NCBI RefSeq assembly: GCF_020103725.1
Contig: NZ_JAHXBG010000008.1
Location: 310,001 to 374,000, forward strand
Length of the DNA: 64,000 nucleotides
Direction of reading: 5' to 3'
From: Hyalangium gracile
GTDB lineage: Bacteria > Myxococcota > Myxococcia > Myxococcales > Myxococcaceae
Part shown: positions 39,431 through 45,173 of the stretch, in pieces
Position numbering within the stretch: the stretch's first letter is position 1
How the letters are laid out: each line of letters begins with the position of its first letter
Notes under the pieces: generated by a model
Told to the model about the DNA's origin: nothing
Seen by the model: the letters and a program-made list of their open reading frames with translations, nothing else
Database searches by the model: none
Translations under genes and position numbers: made by a program

Positions 39431-39511
39431 GCGGATGCCCGAAAGGGCAGCGCCAGTGGGCTGGCGTACCGTTATGTTGCTGGGAGTTCGCGGGGAGGCT
39501 CGGCACACGAC

Positions 39512-40762
39512 ATGGCGCGGCGCGCGGTGTTCTCCAGGCTCGTGAAGTGGGGGCGGAGACACCCGCTGGGGGCCGGAGTGCTCGCGGTGGTGGTGCTGCT
39601 GGCGGGCGTGGGAGCGGTCCGCTCGGCGCGTGGCGCCGAGGTGGAGGCCCTGCGCGTCACCTGGGGGCCTGTCGTCCACCGGATTGTCGTGAGCGGACGG
39701 GTGTCGCCTCCGTCGCAGGTGTCGGTGGCCTCGGTGCTGGCGGGGACGGTGGAGGCGGTGGCGGTGGAGGAGGGGGCGCAGGTGGAGCCGGGGCAGCTGC
39801 TCCTGAAGCTGGAGGCCTCCACGCTGGAGGCGGACGTGGCGCGCGCCCGGGCCGGAGTGGGGCAGGCGCGCGCGAGGCTCAAGCAGTTCCTGGAGGTGAG
39901 CGCGCCGCAGCGGGCGCAGGCCGTGCGGCAGGCCGAGGTGGAGCGGGACCAGGCCGAGCGCGCCTTCGAGCGGACCCGGACGCTGGTGGAGGCGGGCTCG
40001 GTGACGCAGGAGCAGTTCGAGCAGGCCCGGAGCGGGCTGGAACTGGCGCGCAGCCGGCTGGCGAGCGCGCAGGCCCAGGCGACGGCGAGCGTGCGGGGCG
40101 GGGCGGAGGTGTGGCTGGTGGAGGCGGGGGTGGCGCAGGCGGAGGCGGAGCTGAAGGCCGCCCAGGAGCGGCTCGCGCAGGCCACGCTCGCGGCGCCGGT
40201 GCGGGCGGTGGTGCTGCGGCGGGACGTGGAGCCGGGGGACTCGGTGCAGCCGGGCCGGGTACTGCTCACGCTGGCGCGAGTGGGAGAGACGCGGCTGGTG
40301 GTGGAGCCGGATGAGCGCAGCCTGGCCTTCATCCAGCGGGGACAGCCCGCGCGGGCCTCGGCGGATGCGTTTCCCCAGGAGCGCTTCCCCGCGACGGTGG
40401 AGACGGTGGCTCCGGCGGTGGATGCGGAGCGGGGGACGGTGGAGGTGAAGCTCGCGGTGCCGAAGCCGCCGGACTACCTGCGGCCGGGGATGACGGTGTC
40501 GGTGGAGCTCGAGGTAGGGCGCCGCGAGCGAGCGCTGGTGCTGCCGGCGGAGGCGGTGCGAGACACGGCCTCGGAGCAGCCGTGGGTGCTCGTCCCGGAG
40601 GGCGGCCGGGCGGTGAGGAGGGATGTGGAGCTGGGGCTGCGAGGAGAGGATCGGGTGGAGGTGGCGAAGGGGCTGGCCGAGGGGGAGCTGGTCCTGCTTC
40701 CCGCGGGGAGGCCGCTGGTGCCGGGCCAGCGGGTGAGGCCGCGGGTTCGAGAGGGGCGGTGA
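39512..40762 (+). CDS. Periplasmic adaptor (HlyD/MacA family)
   Basis: 416 residues. One N-terminal membrane anchor (LGAGVLAVVVLLAGVGAVRS) precedes a lipoyl half-motif (VEAVAVEEGAQVEPGQLLLK), a long coiled coil (about 105-225, rich in Ala, Arg, Glu) and a second lipoyl/beta-barrel part (VVLRRDVEPGDSVQPGRVLL). This is the adaptor that joins an inner-membrane ABC exporter to an outer-membrane channel. The permease and ATPase follow directly. No TolC-like gene is in the window. Confidence 0.85.
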   Translation: MARRAVFSRLVKWGRRHPLGAGVLAVVVLLAGVGAVRSARGAEVEALRVTWGPVVHRIVVSGRVSPPSQVSVASVLAGTVEAVAVEEGAQVEPGQLLLKLEASTLEADVARARAGVGQARARLKQFLEVSAPQRAQAVRQAEVERDQAERAFERTRTLVEAGSVTQEQFEQARSGLELARSRLASAQAQATASVRGGAEVWLVEAGVAQAEAELKAAQERLAQATLAAPVRAVVLRRDVEPGDSVQPGRVLLTLARVGETRLVVEPDERSLAFIQRGQPARASADAFPQERFPATVETVAPAVDAERGTVEVKLAVPKPPDYLRPGMTVSVELEVGRRERALVLPAEAVRDTASEQPWVLVPEGGRAVRRDVELGLRGEDRVEVAKGLAEGELVLLPAGRPLVPGQRVRPRVREGR

Positions 40763-40768
40763 GGGGCC

Positions 40769-41980
40769 ATGCCGTTCGAGCTCTTCGTCGCGCTGCGGTT
40801 TCTTCGGGAGGGCCGGGCCCAGACGGTGCTGATCCTCGCGGGGGCCTCGGTAGGGGTGGCGGTGATCGTCTTCCTCTCGGCGCTGATCGACGGGCTCCAG
40901 GTGAGCCTGGTGTCGAGGACGCTGGGCTCTCAGCCGCACATCATCGTCCGAGCACCGGATGAGGCGGCCCGGACGCTGACGCGCTCGTCGAGCGATCTGG
41001 TGCAGGTGGTGCGTCCGGCGCAGCGGCTGCGGTCGGTGGACCAATGGCAGCAGGTGCGGACGCTGCTGGAGCGCACGCCGGGGGTGGAGGCGGTGTCGCC
41101 GGTGGTGTCGGGGCCGGGCTTCGCGGCGAGGGGCACGGCGAGCCGCTCGGTGGCGATCCGAGGGGTGGAGCCGGAGGCATTCTCGAGGGTCATCGACGTG
41201 CCGTCGCGCCTGGTGGCGGGGAGGTGGAGGCTGCTCGGGGCCGAGGCGGTGATCGGGCAGGAGCTGGCGAAGGACCTGGGGCTGTCGGTGGGGGACAGGG
41301 TGCGGCTGTCCACGGCGGAGGGGCGCGTGGACACGTTCCTCATCACGGGCATCTTCGATCTGGGGAACAAGGACGTGAACGAGCGCTGGGTGCTGGTGCC
41401 GCTGCGCTCGGCGCAGACGCTGCTGGAGCTGCTGGGCGGAGTGTCGGCGCTGGAGCTGAGGGTGACGGACCTGTTCGGCGCGGACGAGCTGGCGGGAGAG
41501 CTGCGGCGGCGCACGGGGCTGGTGGCGGAGAGCTGGATGACGTTGAACGCGCAGCTGCTGACGGCGCTGCGCTCGCAGAGCAGCTCGCGGTACATGATCC
41601 AGTTCTTCGTGATCGTGGCGGTGGCGCTGGGGATCGCTTCGGTGCTGGTGGTGTCGGTGGTGCAGAAGTCGAGGGAGATCGGCATCCTGAAGGCGATGGG
41701 GACACCGACGGGGAAGGTGATGCGGGTGTTCCTGATCCAGGGAGCGGTGGTGGGGGTGGTGGGCTCGGTGGTGGGCAGCGGGATGGGAGCGGGGCTGGCG
41801 CTCTTCTTCACGTCGATGATGCGGAACGCGGATGGCTCGCCGCTGTTTCCCATCACACTGGAGCCGAGGCTGTTCCTCACGGCGGCGGGAGTGGCGCTGG
41901 TGACGGGGCTGGTGGCGGCGGTGGTGCCGGCGAGACGCGCGGCCTGGCTGGATCCGGCGGTGGTGATCCGCAATGGCTGA
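40769..41980 (+). CDS. ABC transporter permease (MacB/LolC type)
   Basis: 403 residues. TM1 is at about 15-40, a large periplasmic domain lies between 45 and 260, and three helices follow ([20 protein letters not shown], then [20 protein letters not shown] and [20 protein letters not shown]). It has the FtsX/MacB fold with the typical [19 protein letters not shown] coupling segment. These proteins drive lipoprotein, peptide or drug export by mechanotransmission rather than by channelling substrate. Six bases separate it from the adaptor gene. Confidence 0.85.
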
Positions 41981-42683
41981 GCCGGTGCTCCAGCTCCAGG
42001 GAGTGACGAAGGACTACGGGGAGGAGGTCGTCACCCGGGTCCTGCGAGGCATCGACCTGGAGCTGCGAGCCGGTGAGTTCGCGGCGCTGGTGGGGCCATC
42101 GGGCTCGGGGAAGAGCACGCTGCTGAACCTGATCGGGCTGCTGGACAGGCCCACGGGGGGCAAGGTGCTGATCCAGGGGCAGGACACGTCGGAGTTGGAT
42201 GACGACGGGCTGGCGCGGATGCGGGCACGGACACTGGGCTTCATCTTCCAGTTCCACCACCTGCTGGGAGCCTTCAGCGCGGCGGAGAACGTGATGATGC
42301 CGCTGCTGGCGGACGAGGGGCGGCCCACGGCGCGGATGCGGGAGCGAGCGCTGGCGCTGCTGAGGGACGTGGGGCTGGGGGAGCGAGCGGACGCGCCGCC
42401 GAGCAAGCTCTCGGGTGGGCAGCAGCAGCGGGTGGCGATTGCGCGAGCGCTGGTGACATCGCCGCCGCTAGTGCTGGCGGACGAGCCCACGGGCAACCTG
42501 GACACGGGGACCTCGGCGCAGGTGTTCGAACTGCTGCGCCGCTTCAACGTGGAGCGGGGGACGACGTTCCTCATCGTCACGCACGATCTGCGCCTGGCCG
42601 AGCAGTGTGACCGCATCATCGAGATCGTCGACGGAAGCATCCGCAGGGACGAGCCGGTGACCAGGGGCTCCCGGCCCGGGTGA
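41973..42683 (+). CDS. ABC transporter ATP-binding protein (MacB/LolD type)
   Basis: 236 residues with Walker [17 protein letters not shown]-loop [10 protein letters not shown], signature [15 protein letters not shown], Walker [13 protein letters not shown] and switch His in [13 protein letters not shown]. It overlaps the permease stop by 8 bp and powers it. The MacB ATPase and permease, fused in E. coli, are separate here. Substrate unknown. Confidence 0.9.
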
Positions 42684-42720
42684 CCCATCAGGGCTCCCGT
42701 GCTATCTCGATGGAAGGGAC

Positions 42721-43617
42721 ATGCTCCGTCACGTGAGACCGCGCGCACTGCCATGGCTGGCACTCTTCTCGCTGGTCTCCTGCAAGGGATGCTTCGATGA
42801 AGCATCCACGCGCGCCCCGGACGCCGCTCCGAGAGCTGAGCGTCCTCGGCCCGCTGACGGTGGCGGCGATGGGCTCCAGGTCCTCGAGACGAGCGTGTTC
42901 CGTGCGGCGGGCGAGCCGGACTTCAAGAACCGTTATGCGTCGACGGTCATGATCACGACGGGACCGCCAGAGGCGTCGAAGACATGCAGCGGCGTGCTCC
43001 TCGCTCCAAGCCTCGCCCTCACGGCGGCGCACTGTGTCTGCGAACCGCGAGCCGAATGCGTCGCGACGGCCTATGTGACGACAGTGACTTATGATCCCGT
43101 GAAGGCGAGGATCGGCACGGGCGGGCAGACCCGGGTCTACGAGGGAGTCGTGCTGCCTCATCCGGAACTCGAGCTCCTTGTGGACCCCACGGGACAGGTC
43201 GTGGCCGGCAAGGCGAATCTGGCGCTCCTTCAGCTGGACGAGCCGGTTGAGGGCCTCCACTCAGGGTTCGCGCTGACAGACACCCCTGCTCAATCCGGCG
43301 AGCTCCTGGTCATGGCGGGTTATGGGCGAGGGGGAGACGTGGGGAGCTTCTATGGGCTTCGCTACTTCAGGAAGAACAAGGTCGCGCGGGCTTCGACACC
43401 TGGAGGTGAGCGAGTCCTGTACGAGCAGCAGGGCACATCGCTGTACAATGGCTTCGACGGCGGGCCCTGCTTTCGAGAAGAGGGCCCGCAGCGATGGCTC
43501 GTGGGCATCGCGACCTGGGGCTCCGACAAGGAACTGTCGTTCACAGACCTGTCTCCGTACCAGGACTGGTTGCGCGCCGAGCTCAGCAAGGATGCGCGCG
43601 ACTCCGGACGTCCGTGA
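42721..43617 (+). CDS. Trypsin-fold lipoprotein lacking two catalytic residues (pseudoprotease)
   Basis: 298 residues. The lipobox is ALFSLVSCKGCF (Cys21). The fold is that of S1 serine proteases: His104 in LTAAHCVC is kept. The Asp position reads KANLALLQ (Asn166 for Asp), and the Ser position reads NGFDGGPC (Asp246 for Ser in GDSGGP). It should therefore be inactive as a protease and may bind peptides, act as a decoy or regulate the next protein. Except at these positions, the catalytic blocks align closely with the intact paralogue at 43634. The substitutions are clear in the DNA (TTCGACGGC, GCGAATCTG). Confidence 0.8.
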   Translation: MLRHVRPRALPWLALFSLVSCKGCFDEASTRAPDAAPRAERPRPADGGGDGLQVLETSVFRAAGEPDFKNRYASTVMITTGPPEASKTCSGVLLAPSLALTAAHCVCEPRAECVATAYVTTVTYDPVKARIGTGGQTRVYEGVVLPHPELELLVDPTGQVVAGKANLALLQLDEPVEGLHSGFALTDTPAQSGELLVMAGYGRGGDVGSFYGLRYFRKNKVARASTPGGERVLYEQQGTSLYNGFDGGPCFREEGPQRWLVGIATWGSDKELSFTDLSPYQDWLRAELSKDARDSGRP

Positions 43618-43633
43618 AGGAGGAAACGGCTCC

Positions 43634-44560
43634 ATGATGGCGCATCGAGGCGGTACCACGCTCTCTTCCGTGCTGGCGGTGCTGCTCGTGGGGGCAGGGT
43701 GTGCGACGGCTCCCGTCGCGCCTCGGCTGGATGAAGCGCAAGCTCAGGTCTTCGAGCTCCCGGCGGAGGCGGTGTCTCCCCCGGCCCAGGCGGACCAGCT
43801 GTTCGTGTTGGGCGCCACGGGTGTGGATGTATCGAACCGCTACCTGTCGACGGTGGTCGTCACCACGGATGAGGCGTCCGGCATGTGCAGTGGCGTTCTC
43901 ATCAGCCCACGCCTCGTGCTGACCGCGGGGCATTGCGTGTGTGGACGGCGAAGGGTGACGCATGCCGCGGGTGCCAGCGGAACCGAGATCGACGGCTCAC
44001 AATGCGCCAGCAAGGCCTTTGCCACGGTCACGGCCTACGAGCCGACCAAGGCGAAGTCGCAATACTCCATGCTGCCCCGCATCTATCAGGGGAGCGTCCG
44101 ACCCCATGGCGAGCTGAAGATCCACCTCGATGCGCAGGACAACGTCGTGTCGAGTCGAGCCGATCTGGCCCTCATCCTGTTGGAGGAGGCGGTAGCGGGT
44201 GTGGGAGTGGCGCAGCTCGCGGGGAGCGAGGTGCGCCAGGAAGAAGCCCTCGTCATGGTGGGCTACGGCGCTGACAAGACGGACCTGGGGGAGGCCATGC
44301 CGGGATTTCGTCGCTATGGCACCAATGCGGTCACTCAAGTAAGGCCCCCGGAAGAGGGGCTCTTCGTCATGGAGAAGGAGGGGGCGCACTCGTATGCCGG
44401 AGACAGCGGAGGGCCATGCTTCCGCGAAGACAAGAAGGGCCGCTGGCTGGTGGGCATCTCGGCGCGAGGAACGGGCAAGGTGTCGAGATTCACGAGCACC
44501 TACCGTTACAAGGCCTGGCTGGAGCAGGAGATCAAACTCGCCGCGAAGCGCAAGACGTGA
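43634..44560 (+). CDS. Trypsin-like serine protease lipoprotein
   Basis: 308 residues with lipobox LLVGAGCATAP (Cys23). The full triad is present: His100 in LTAGHCVC, Asp177 in SRADLALILL and Ser258 in YAGDSGGPC. Paired cysteines suggest disulfides. It is an envelope or surface protease of the S1 family. The ATG at 43634 has GGAGG about 10 bases upstream, 16 bp after the degenerate paralogue's stop, so both are co-transcribed. Tandem duplication followed by loss of activity in the first copy is likely. Confidence 0.85.
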   Translation: MMAHRGGTTLSSVLAVLLVGAGCATAPVAPRLDEAQAQVFELPAEAVSPPAQADQLFVLGATGVDVSNRYLSTVVVTTDEASGMCSGVLISPRLVLTAGHCVCGRRRVTHAAGASGTEIDGSQCASKAFATVTAYEPTKAKSQYSMLPRIYQGSVRPHGELKIHLDAQDNVVSSRADLALILLEEAVAGVGVAQLAGSEVRQEEALVMVGYGADKTDLGEAMPGFRRYGTNAVTQVRPPEEGLFVMEKEGAHSYAGDSGGPCFREDKKGRWLVGISARGTGKVSRFTSTYRYKAWLEQEIKLAAKRKT

Positions 44561-44667
44561 GCTTGTCAGGAAGGGCCGCTGCCAGGCATGGCGCTAAGGA
44601 CGAACGGTCCGCGCGCGATTGCCGTCAAGTCTGCTGGGACACACCGTTGAGCTGACGGGAGACGCCC

Positions 44668-45111
44668 ATGCTCACGATCGACGAACTGATGACCCGCGAT
44701 GTCGTCACGCTGGAGGCGGACGACGCGCTCATTGATGTGGATGACCTCTTGAAGCGGCACCACATCCGCCACGTCCCCGTCGTCCACGACGGGAAGCTCG
44801 TGGGGATGGTGAGCCACCGGGACCTCATCCGCGCGCTCGCCCGTCAGCCCCTCGGGCAGGGCGCGAGGCCCCTCGGCGTGAAGGACGTGATGACCCGGGA
44901 CGTGGAGACGGTGCTCCCCTCCACCTCCACGCGCCAGGCCATCGAGAAGCTCCTGGACCGGCGCTTCGGGTGCCTGCCCGTGGTGGATGAGAAGGGAACC
45001 CTCGTGGGCATCGTCACCGAGTCCGACTTCCTGCGCCTGGCCCTGGCGCTCCTCAAGGAGCGCGAGACACGCACGCCCGAGTACGAGCAGGTGCCGGTGA
45101 GCCCGCACTGA
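44668..45111 (+). CDS. Two-CBS-domain protein
   Basis: 147 residues, essentially a Bateman pair. CBS1 is at about 5-60 (VDDLLKRHHIRHVPVVHDGK, LVGMVSHRDLIRAL) and CBS2 at about 72-130 (RQAIEKLLDRRFGCLPVVDE, LVGIVTESDFLRLALAL). Such stand-alone pairs bind adenine nucleotides and regulate other proteins. The ATG at 44668 (GGGAGAC upstream) is monocistronic. Confidence 0.85.
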   Translation: MLTIDELMTRDVVTLEADDALIDVDDLLKRHHIRHVPVVHDGKLVGMVSHRDLIRALARQPLGQGARPLGVKDVMTRDVETVLPSTSTRQAIEKLLDRRFGCLPVVDEKGTLVGIVTESDFLRLALALLKERETRTPEYEQVPVSPH

Positions 45112-45173
45112 CGCGAGCCTCTTGGCTTTCGGCCCGCCGGGCTGGAGGATGCGCCGCCCCAAACCCGGCCCCC

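What the first reader, a model, noticed from the sequence alone, without database searches (positions are those of the whole stretch)
42721..44560. Tandem protease and pseudoprotease lipoproteins
The upstream gene keeps the trypsin fold and His but has Asn for the Asp and Asp for the Ser; the downstream gene keeps all three. They are 16 bp apart and both are lipoproteins. A regulator or substrate-binding partner made from a dead protease, encoded with the live one, is a recurring but rarely described arrangement in bacteria.
Basis: seen in the sequence. Interest (0 to 1): 0.6.

Follow-up and report, generated by a model that had tools for sequence, protein, structure and literature searches.

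The report
Repeated dead-plus-live protease lipoprotein pairs
The genome carries about a dozen two-gene units, each encoding two related membrane-anchored trypsin-like proteins; the second keeps its protease active site while the first has often lost it, which suggests that the first is a non-cutting partner of the second.

Summary
Observation confirmed. Gene 1 (42721-43617) keeps His but has Asn for Asp102, Asp for Ser195 and Phe for Asp194; gene 2 (43634-44560) is intact; gap 16 bp. It is one case of a larger pattern. A lineage-restricted family (7 of 195 phylum genomes sampled, all Myxococcaceae) occurs mostly as such pairs, about a dozen in this genome. In 42 complete pairs from six genomes, the downstream protein keeps H57/D102/D194/S195 in 42 of 42; the upstream triad is broken in 17, only D194 changed in 9, intact in 16. 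With nearly equal branch length, the upstream lineage shows at least 7 triad losses, the downstream one (an orphan). The window gene belongs to an old dead class (21 members, four genomes) with invariant G-[YF]-x-GGPC, x (the serine position) being hypervariable; dead copies are under purifying selection. Pairs are inherited as matched units; some dead-class pairs are ~1.9 kb cassettes at unrelated sites. Best reading: a non-catalytic partner of the downstream protease. Interaction and activity are untested. Precedents exist (MamO/MamE, CspC/CspB, UmbA): a new variant of a known kind, on an unusual scale.

The parts
42721..43617 (+). Upstream gene: class A trypsin-fold pseudoprotease, predicted lipoprotein, 298 aa
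   Evidence: ORF and Pfam Trypsin; class A clade SH-aLRT 99; AlphaFold pLDDT 82.4
42781..42783 (+). Predicted lipidated Cys21 (lipobox LVSC), followed by a second Cys at +4
   Evidence: sequence; +4 Cys in 23 of 36 upstream-type and 1 of 23 downstream-type proteins with a lipobox match
43030..43032 (+). His57 position, His kept
43216..43218 (+). Asp102 position, now Asn
43453..43458 (+). Asp194-Ser195 position, now Phe-Asp
43618..43633 (+). 16 bp spacer with GGAGG-type ribosome site for gene 2
   Evidence: median spacer of 35 pairs with start models is 16 bp, range -32 to 53
43634..44560 (+). Downstream gene: trypsin-like protease with intact triad, predicted lipoprotein, 308 aa
   Evidence: AlphaFold pLDDT 84.6
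43931..43933 (+). Catalytic His57 position
44162..44164 (+). Catalytic Asp102 position
44402..44407 (+). Asp194-Ser195, intact

Best explanation
Each unit is a two-gene operon for two cell-envelope lipoproteins that plausibly descend from one ancient duplication. The downstream protein is the working trypsin-like protease. The upstream protein is its dedicated partner: it works by binding (the protease, or protease plus target), not by cutting, so its own active site is dispensable and has been lost repeatedly. In the window's class the dead site has been remodelled (aromatics at 189, 191 and 194, free residue at 195), probably into a plugged or binding cleft. Shown here: pair architecture, asymmetric conservation, purifying selection on dead copies, co-inheritance of matched classes. 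Inferred: co-expression, lipidation, physical contact, and that the contact activates, targets or restrains the protease.
For: 42 of 42 downstream intact versus 17 of 42 upstream triad broken, plus 9 with only D194 changed. Total branch length 28.4 up versus 27.6 down, with at least 7 triad losses up and 1 down, the latter in an orphan. dN/dS of dead upstream homologues 0.20-0.41, live ones 0.10-0.32. The serine position in class A ranks 237 of 256 in variability between invariant G, [YF] and GGPC. Up and down distances correlate, Mantel r 0.70 against a maximum of 0.19 in 9999 permutations, and 0 of 42 pairs cross classes. Upstream-type genes occur alone (9 cases) while no unambiguous intact downstream-type gene does. 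Spacers -32 to 53 bp in 35 pairs. Precedent of a trypsin-fold dead partner needed for proteolysis: MamO/MamE.
Against: Mirrored trees follow from pairs being duplicated as units and do not prove contact. 16 of 42 upstream partners keep all four residues and may be working proteases. Rarity of lone downstream genes may come from promoter loss. Some dead upstream genes stand without a partner (L013 second locus, L149, L157), so they either have another role or are remnants. No protein data of any kind.
Confidence: 0.52

Rival explanations
1. Two ordinary envelope proteases with relaxed constraint: the tandem copies are partly redundant digestive enzymes and the first copy is free to decay; no functional partnership.
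For: Birth-and-death pattern with fragments and frameshifts (26 of 132 family ORFs cover under 80% of the model); 16 of 42 upstream copies intact.
Against: Catalytic loss never hits the downstream copy of a complete tandem pair (0 of 42); dead copies stay under purifying selection and share a conserved new motif over 21 sequences.
Confidence: 0.2
2. Capture-and-cut system: the upstream lipoprotein binds a foreign or prey protein and hands it to the downstream protease, like the Mycoplasma MIB-MIP pairs (recalled, no call); diversification of pairs tracks diverse targets.
For: Many diverged paralogous pairs per genome; syntenic pairs diverge faster than most flanking genes; cleft residue 195 hypervariable in class A.
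Against: Aromatics at 189 and 194 in class A would fill the S1 region, arguing against substrate-like binding there (inference); no target known.
Confidence: 0.15
3. Effector plus protector: the downstream protease is harmful to the producer's envelope or to neighbours, and the upstream protein restrains it (antitoxin or immunity logic), possibly with transfer of both lipoproteins between cells by outer membrane exchange.
For: No unambiguous intact lone downstream gene; the one full-length orphan has lost His57 (L177); upstream-only loci are common. Patchy, partly mobile, fast-diverging.
Against: Promoter polarity explains part of the orphan asymmetry. SitBAI toxins of outer membrane exchange are of another make: SitA nucleases with a predicted SitB barrel. 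No recurring neighbour gene. Transfer not tested.
Confidence: 0.13

Closest known systems
MamO / MamE of magnetotactic bacteria (PMC4794232, passages read)
   Same: A trypsin-fold protease and a trypsin-fold pseudoprotease in one gene cluster; the dead one is needed for the live one's proteolysis in a non-catalytic way; active/inactive pairing arose three times.
   Different: MamE is an HtrA-type protease and MamO carries a transporter domain; no many-copy family of pairs is described in the passages read. Here: predicted lipoproteins, no extra domain, about a dozen pairs per genome, upstream order fixed.
CspC / CspB (and CspA) of Clostridioides difficile (PMC4619724, passages read)
   Same: Pseudoprotease that activates a related live protease, encoded together.
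   Different: Subtilisin fold, spore germination.
UmbA of Streptomyces umbrella particles (PMC11062931, passages read)
   Same: Bacterial paralogous trypsin-like domains without a complete triad; the cleft binds the extended N terminus of a partner. An umbrella particle chain is the top Foldseek hit of the live partner's model (8w20_G, E 4.1e-11).
   Different: UmbA carries lectins and belongs to a toxin particle with ALF repeats; its partner is UmbB, not a live protease. No ALF hit in this genome, but the control genomes did not ring either.
Scabies mite inactivated protease paralogues (SMIPP-S)
   Same: Inactivated trypsin-fold paralogues; 3h7o_A tops the VIA list for the dead protein (Z 22.5, rmsd 2.7, 200 aligned, tied with many active proteases).
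   Different: Eukaryotic, secreted, not paired with a live gene in an operon (recalled).

Membership tests
Chymotrypsin/trypsin fold (Pfam PF00089) | Significant match to the family model and fold | tested here: met
   Both proteins above curated cut-off; both models align over about 200 residues to trypsin-fold chains, Z about 22-23
Active S1 serine protease (gene 1) | His57, Asp102, Ser195 | tested here: not met
   Asn and Asp at 102 and 195
Active S1 serine protease (gene 2) | His57, Asp102, Ser195 | tested here: met
   All three present; activity itself not testable here
Bacterial lipoprotein | Signal peptide with lipobox Cys | tested here: met
   Lipobox read for both window proteins; a strict pattern (recalled PROSITE form) matched in 36 of 50 upstream and 23 of 38 downstream start models; 11 upstream and 7 downstream rows had no start model. 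Lipidation itself not tested
Active/inactive protease partner pair (MamE/MamO, CspB/CspC type) | Live and dead homologues encoded together | tested here: met
Active/inactive protease partner pair (MamE/MamO, CspB/CspC type) | Dead member modulates the live member | not testable with these tools
   needs biochemistry
SitBAI outer membrane exchange toxins | SitA nuclease lipoprotein with SitB barrel and SitI immunity gene | tested here: not met
   Both genes here are trypsin-fold and no recurring third gene was found; the paper's main text has 0 occurrences of protease, trypsin or peptidase
Umbrella toxin UmbA | ALF-repeat UmbC in the genome and lectin domain on UmbA | tested here: inconclusive
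   No ALF hit, but control genomes had none either; no lectin domain reported by Pfam
Lamassu LmuA protease effector | LmuA model match and SMC partner | tested here: inconclusive
   Weak match 7.6e-7 for gene 2 over the trypsin part only; no SMC search made; signal peptide argues against

The most novel reading that the evidence does not exclude
A mobile, diversifying conflict or self-recognition system of myxobacterial outer membranes in which the effector is a live trypsin-like lipoprotein and its cognate protector is its own dead twin, with the former catalytic serine turned into a freely varying residue in the recognition cleft.
Probability: 0.15. Interest if true: 0.85.

Novelty: new variant of a known kind. 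Interest (0 to 1): 0.6.

Why it matters
The active/inactive protease pairs in bacteria that I found in print sit at single loci. Here one genome holds about a dozen diverged pairs, some with an intact first gene, others with different degrees of loss, always with a live second gene when the pair is complete. That gives a natural series for testing how a protease becomes a non-catalytic partner and whether pseudoproteases control their live twins.

Tried and rejected
Recent local decay of the first gene: rejected, because its class is old, conserved and under purifying selection.

A recurring third gene: 68 of 148 flanking ORFs picked by a coding-bias filter, around 35 of the 40 loci of G000, G006 and G020 (L022, L023, L024, L177 and L184 left out), gave no Pfam family in more than 4 members, aldo/keto reductase.

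Canonical zymogen activation: by the alignment range, the residue before position 17 in the live protein is Leu, preceded by Val, not Arg/Lys-Ile; left open. Phage or plasmid carriage: no tblastn match in the phage and plasmid collections; two weak viral contig hits (21 and 33% identity) judged generic trypsins, not followed. Separate origin of the class A pairs: the free quick tree put up-A beside down-A, but holding all 61 upstream-type rows together gave a likelihood 1.81 higher (p-AU 0.53), so one ancestral duplication is compatible, not proven. Terminal repeats at cassette ends: none seen by eye. The ALF search is uninformative. The first lipobox script used too narrow a pattern and was replaced. 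NCBIfam gave no usable name. Literature: searches listed no paper describing these pairs in the held open-access library; subscription papers are not covered.

Full report
What is in the window. Gene 1 (42721-43617) and gene 2 (43634-44560) are adjacent, same strand, 16 bp apart, 39% identical over 245 aa, both trypsin-family by Pfam. Gene 1 has H104 but N166 and D246 at the Asp102 and Ser195 positions, and F245 at the Asp194 position; gene 2 is intact. Both start with a signal peptide ending in a lipobox Cys.

A family of pairs. Searching the window's own genome (G000, 11.7 Mb) with gene 2 gave 41 match pieces, most of the good ones in tandem. From 16 family stretches of G000 (two more fetched stretches held only distant trypsins and were left out) and 55 stretches of six other genomes, 132 family ORFs were found. 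106 cover at least 80% of the profile and were used for trees; 26 fragments were dropped. The profile found the family in 7 of 96 genomes of the family sample and in 7 of 195 of the phylum sample, the same seven. G020 is unnamed. Within the window's genus code, G000, G002 and G006 carry many; G001, G003, G004 and G005 none. The searches score a capped number of candidates per genome, so per-genome counts are lower bounds.

Asymmetric conservation. 42 tandem pairs have both domains at 80% coverage or more (L160, with two upstream-type genes, was left out; L178 is included although its downstream ORF lacks the first 31 profile positions). Downstream: H57, D102, D194, S195 unchanged in 42 of 42. 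Upstream: triad broken in 17, only D194 changed or missing in 9, all four intact in 16. Over all 106 rows, upstream-type: 26 of 61 triad broken, 37 of 61 any of the four changed, 7 and 8 parsimony changes; downstream-type: 1 of 45, 1 change, the orphan L177. Branch length is 28.4 and 27.6. Type was assigned by position, and for 12 single genes by nearest neighbour on the tree; L199 is ambiguous.

The window gene's class. Class A upstream: 21 sequences from G000, G002, G006 and G020, SH-aLRT 99. All have Y or F at 194; the serine position holds A, T, D, N, H, K, E, P, R or S and ranks 237 of 256 in entropy (2.89 bits, median 1.68), while G193, G196, G197, P198 and C199 are 21 of 21. Position 189 is F or Y in 18 of 21. 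In 43 tandem downstream-type sequences the four catalytic-site residues are invariant. Only the window member has Asn at 102 within class A.

Selection and co-inheritance. Among pairs of homologues at 68% identity or more (20 comparisons, some between paralogues of one genome), dead upstream genes give NG86 dN/dS 0.20-0.41 and live genes 0.10-0.32. Up and down distance matrices correlate (Mantel r 0.70 by p-distance, 0.67 by tree; maximum of 9999 permutations 0.19 and 0.26). Classes match A-A 13, B-B 5, C-C 24, with no crossing (the class of downstream genes was entered from the tree). This shows inheritance as units, not contact.

Orphans and broken copies. Upstream-type genes without a partner in the following 2.5 kb: 9 (L009, L013 second locus, L149, L154, L157, L163, L166, L186, L191; L163 keeps a 16-residue remnant; L150 ends at a contig end and is not counted). 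Downstream-type without partner: L177 (His57 and Asp194 changed), L022 and L171 (5' truncated). Downstream ORF broken beside an intact upstream domain: L018, L164, L172, L174, L195; I saw no clear reverse case. Draft assembly errors and promoter polarity are not excluded.

Mobility. For L148/L173/L176 nucleotide similarity is confined to about 1.9 kb, from roughly 20-40 bp before gene 1 to the stop codon of gene 2, with unrelated flanks. L018/L151/L178 behave much alike; L018/L151 have dS 0.038, against 0.38 or more for the other comparisons outside this trio, suggesting recent transfer. L151 has a phage-integrase fragment just upstream (PF00589, 4.3e-12). Other pairs sit in syntenic places (L010/L188, L019/L187, L013/L185, L015/L182, L011/L174, L021/L158) and are 47-78% identical there, while flanking proteins are mostly 70-98% identical, with some lower. 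At the window's own site the flanks 39432 and 45160 lie next to each other in G006 and G001 (24 and 2 bp apart) and 950 bp apart in G005; G002 has the CBS gene there without the pair; none of the six flank loci holds a family gene.

Structure. AlphaFold models: gene 1 pLDDT 82.4, gene 2 84.6, with low-confidence N-terminal 35-40 residues. Gene 1's first VIA row is SMIPP-S-I1 (3h7o_A, Z 22.5, rmsd 2.7, 200 aligned), tied with active proteases. Gene 2: first Foldseek row is umbrella particle chain 8w20_G, VIA Z 23.4, rmsd 2.4, 197 aligned, again tied. The fold gives no function.

Function. Best reading: the upstream protein is a non-catalytic partner of the downstream protease, by analogy with MamO/MamE, CspC/CspB and the UmbA cleft that holds a partner's N terminus. 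Activation, targeting and restraint are not distinguished. The orphan pattern leans to restraint or dependence, but numbers are small.

Novelty. No paper describing these pairs was listed by the searches of the held library. The kind, a dead protease encoded with a live one, is known; the scale, mobility, fixed order and graded losses within one family are, to my knowledge, new.

Noticed in passing
window 39433-45160: Insertion hot spot: HlyD/MacB/LolD-type efflux genes, the pair and a CBS gene lie between flanks that are adjacent in relatives; the efflux genes sit on another contig in G002, and G020 has another 3.6 kb insert there.
   Followed up: partly
L009 and L186, with L160 and L195 at the same syntenic site: Conserved site of a lone upstream-type gene with an intact triad and no recognised lipobox in G000 and G006; G002 has two upstream-type genes there, G020 an upstream gene plus a downstream remnant.
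   Followed up: partly
L151 2831-3340 minus strand: Phage integrase C-terminal fragment directly upstream of a class A cassette.
   Followed up: partly
family-wide, e.g. window 42781-42792: Upstream lipoproteins often carry a second Cys at +4 after the lipidated Cys (23 of 36), downstream ones almost never (1 of 23); role unknown.
   Followed up: no
L018 3509-4909: ORF with a weak match to the apextrin C-terminal domain ApeC (5.8e-7) beside a pair.
   Followed up: no
L156 and L011: Arrays longer than two: down-up-down on a short contig (L156) and up-down-down (L011).
   Followed up: partly
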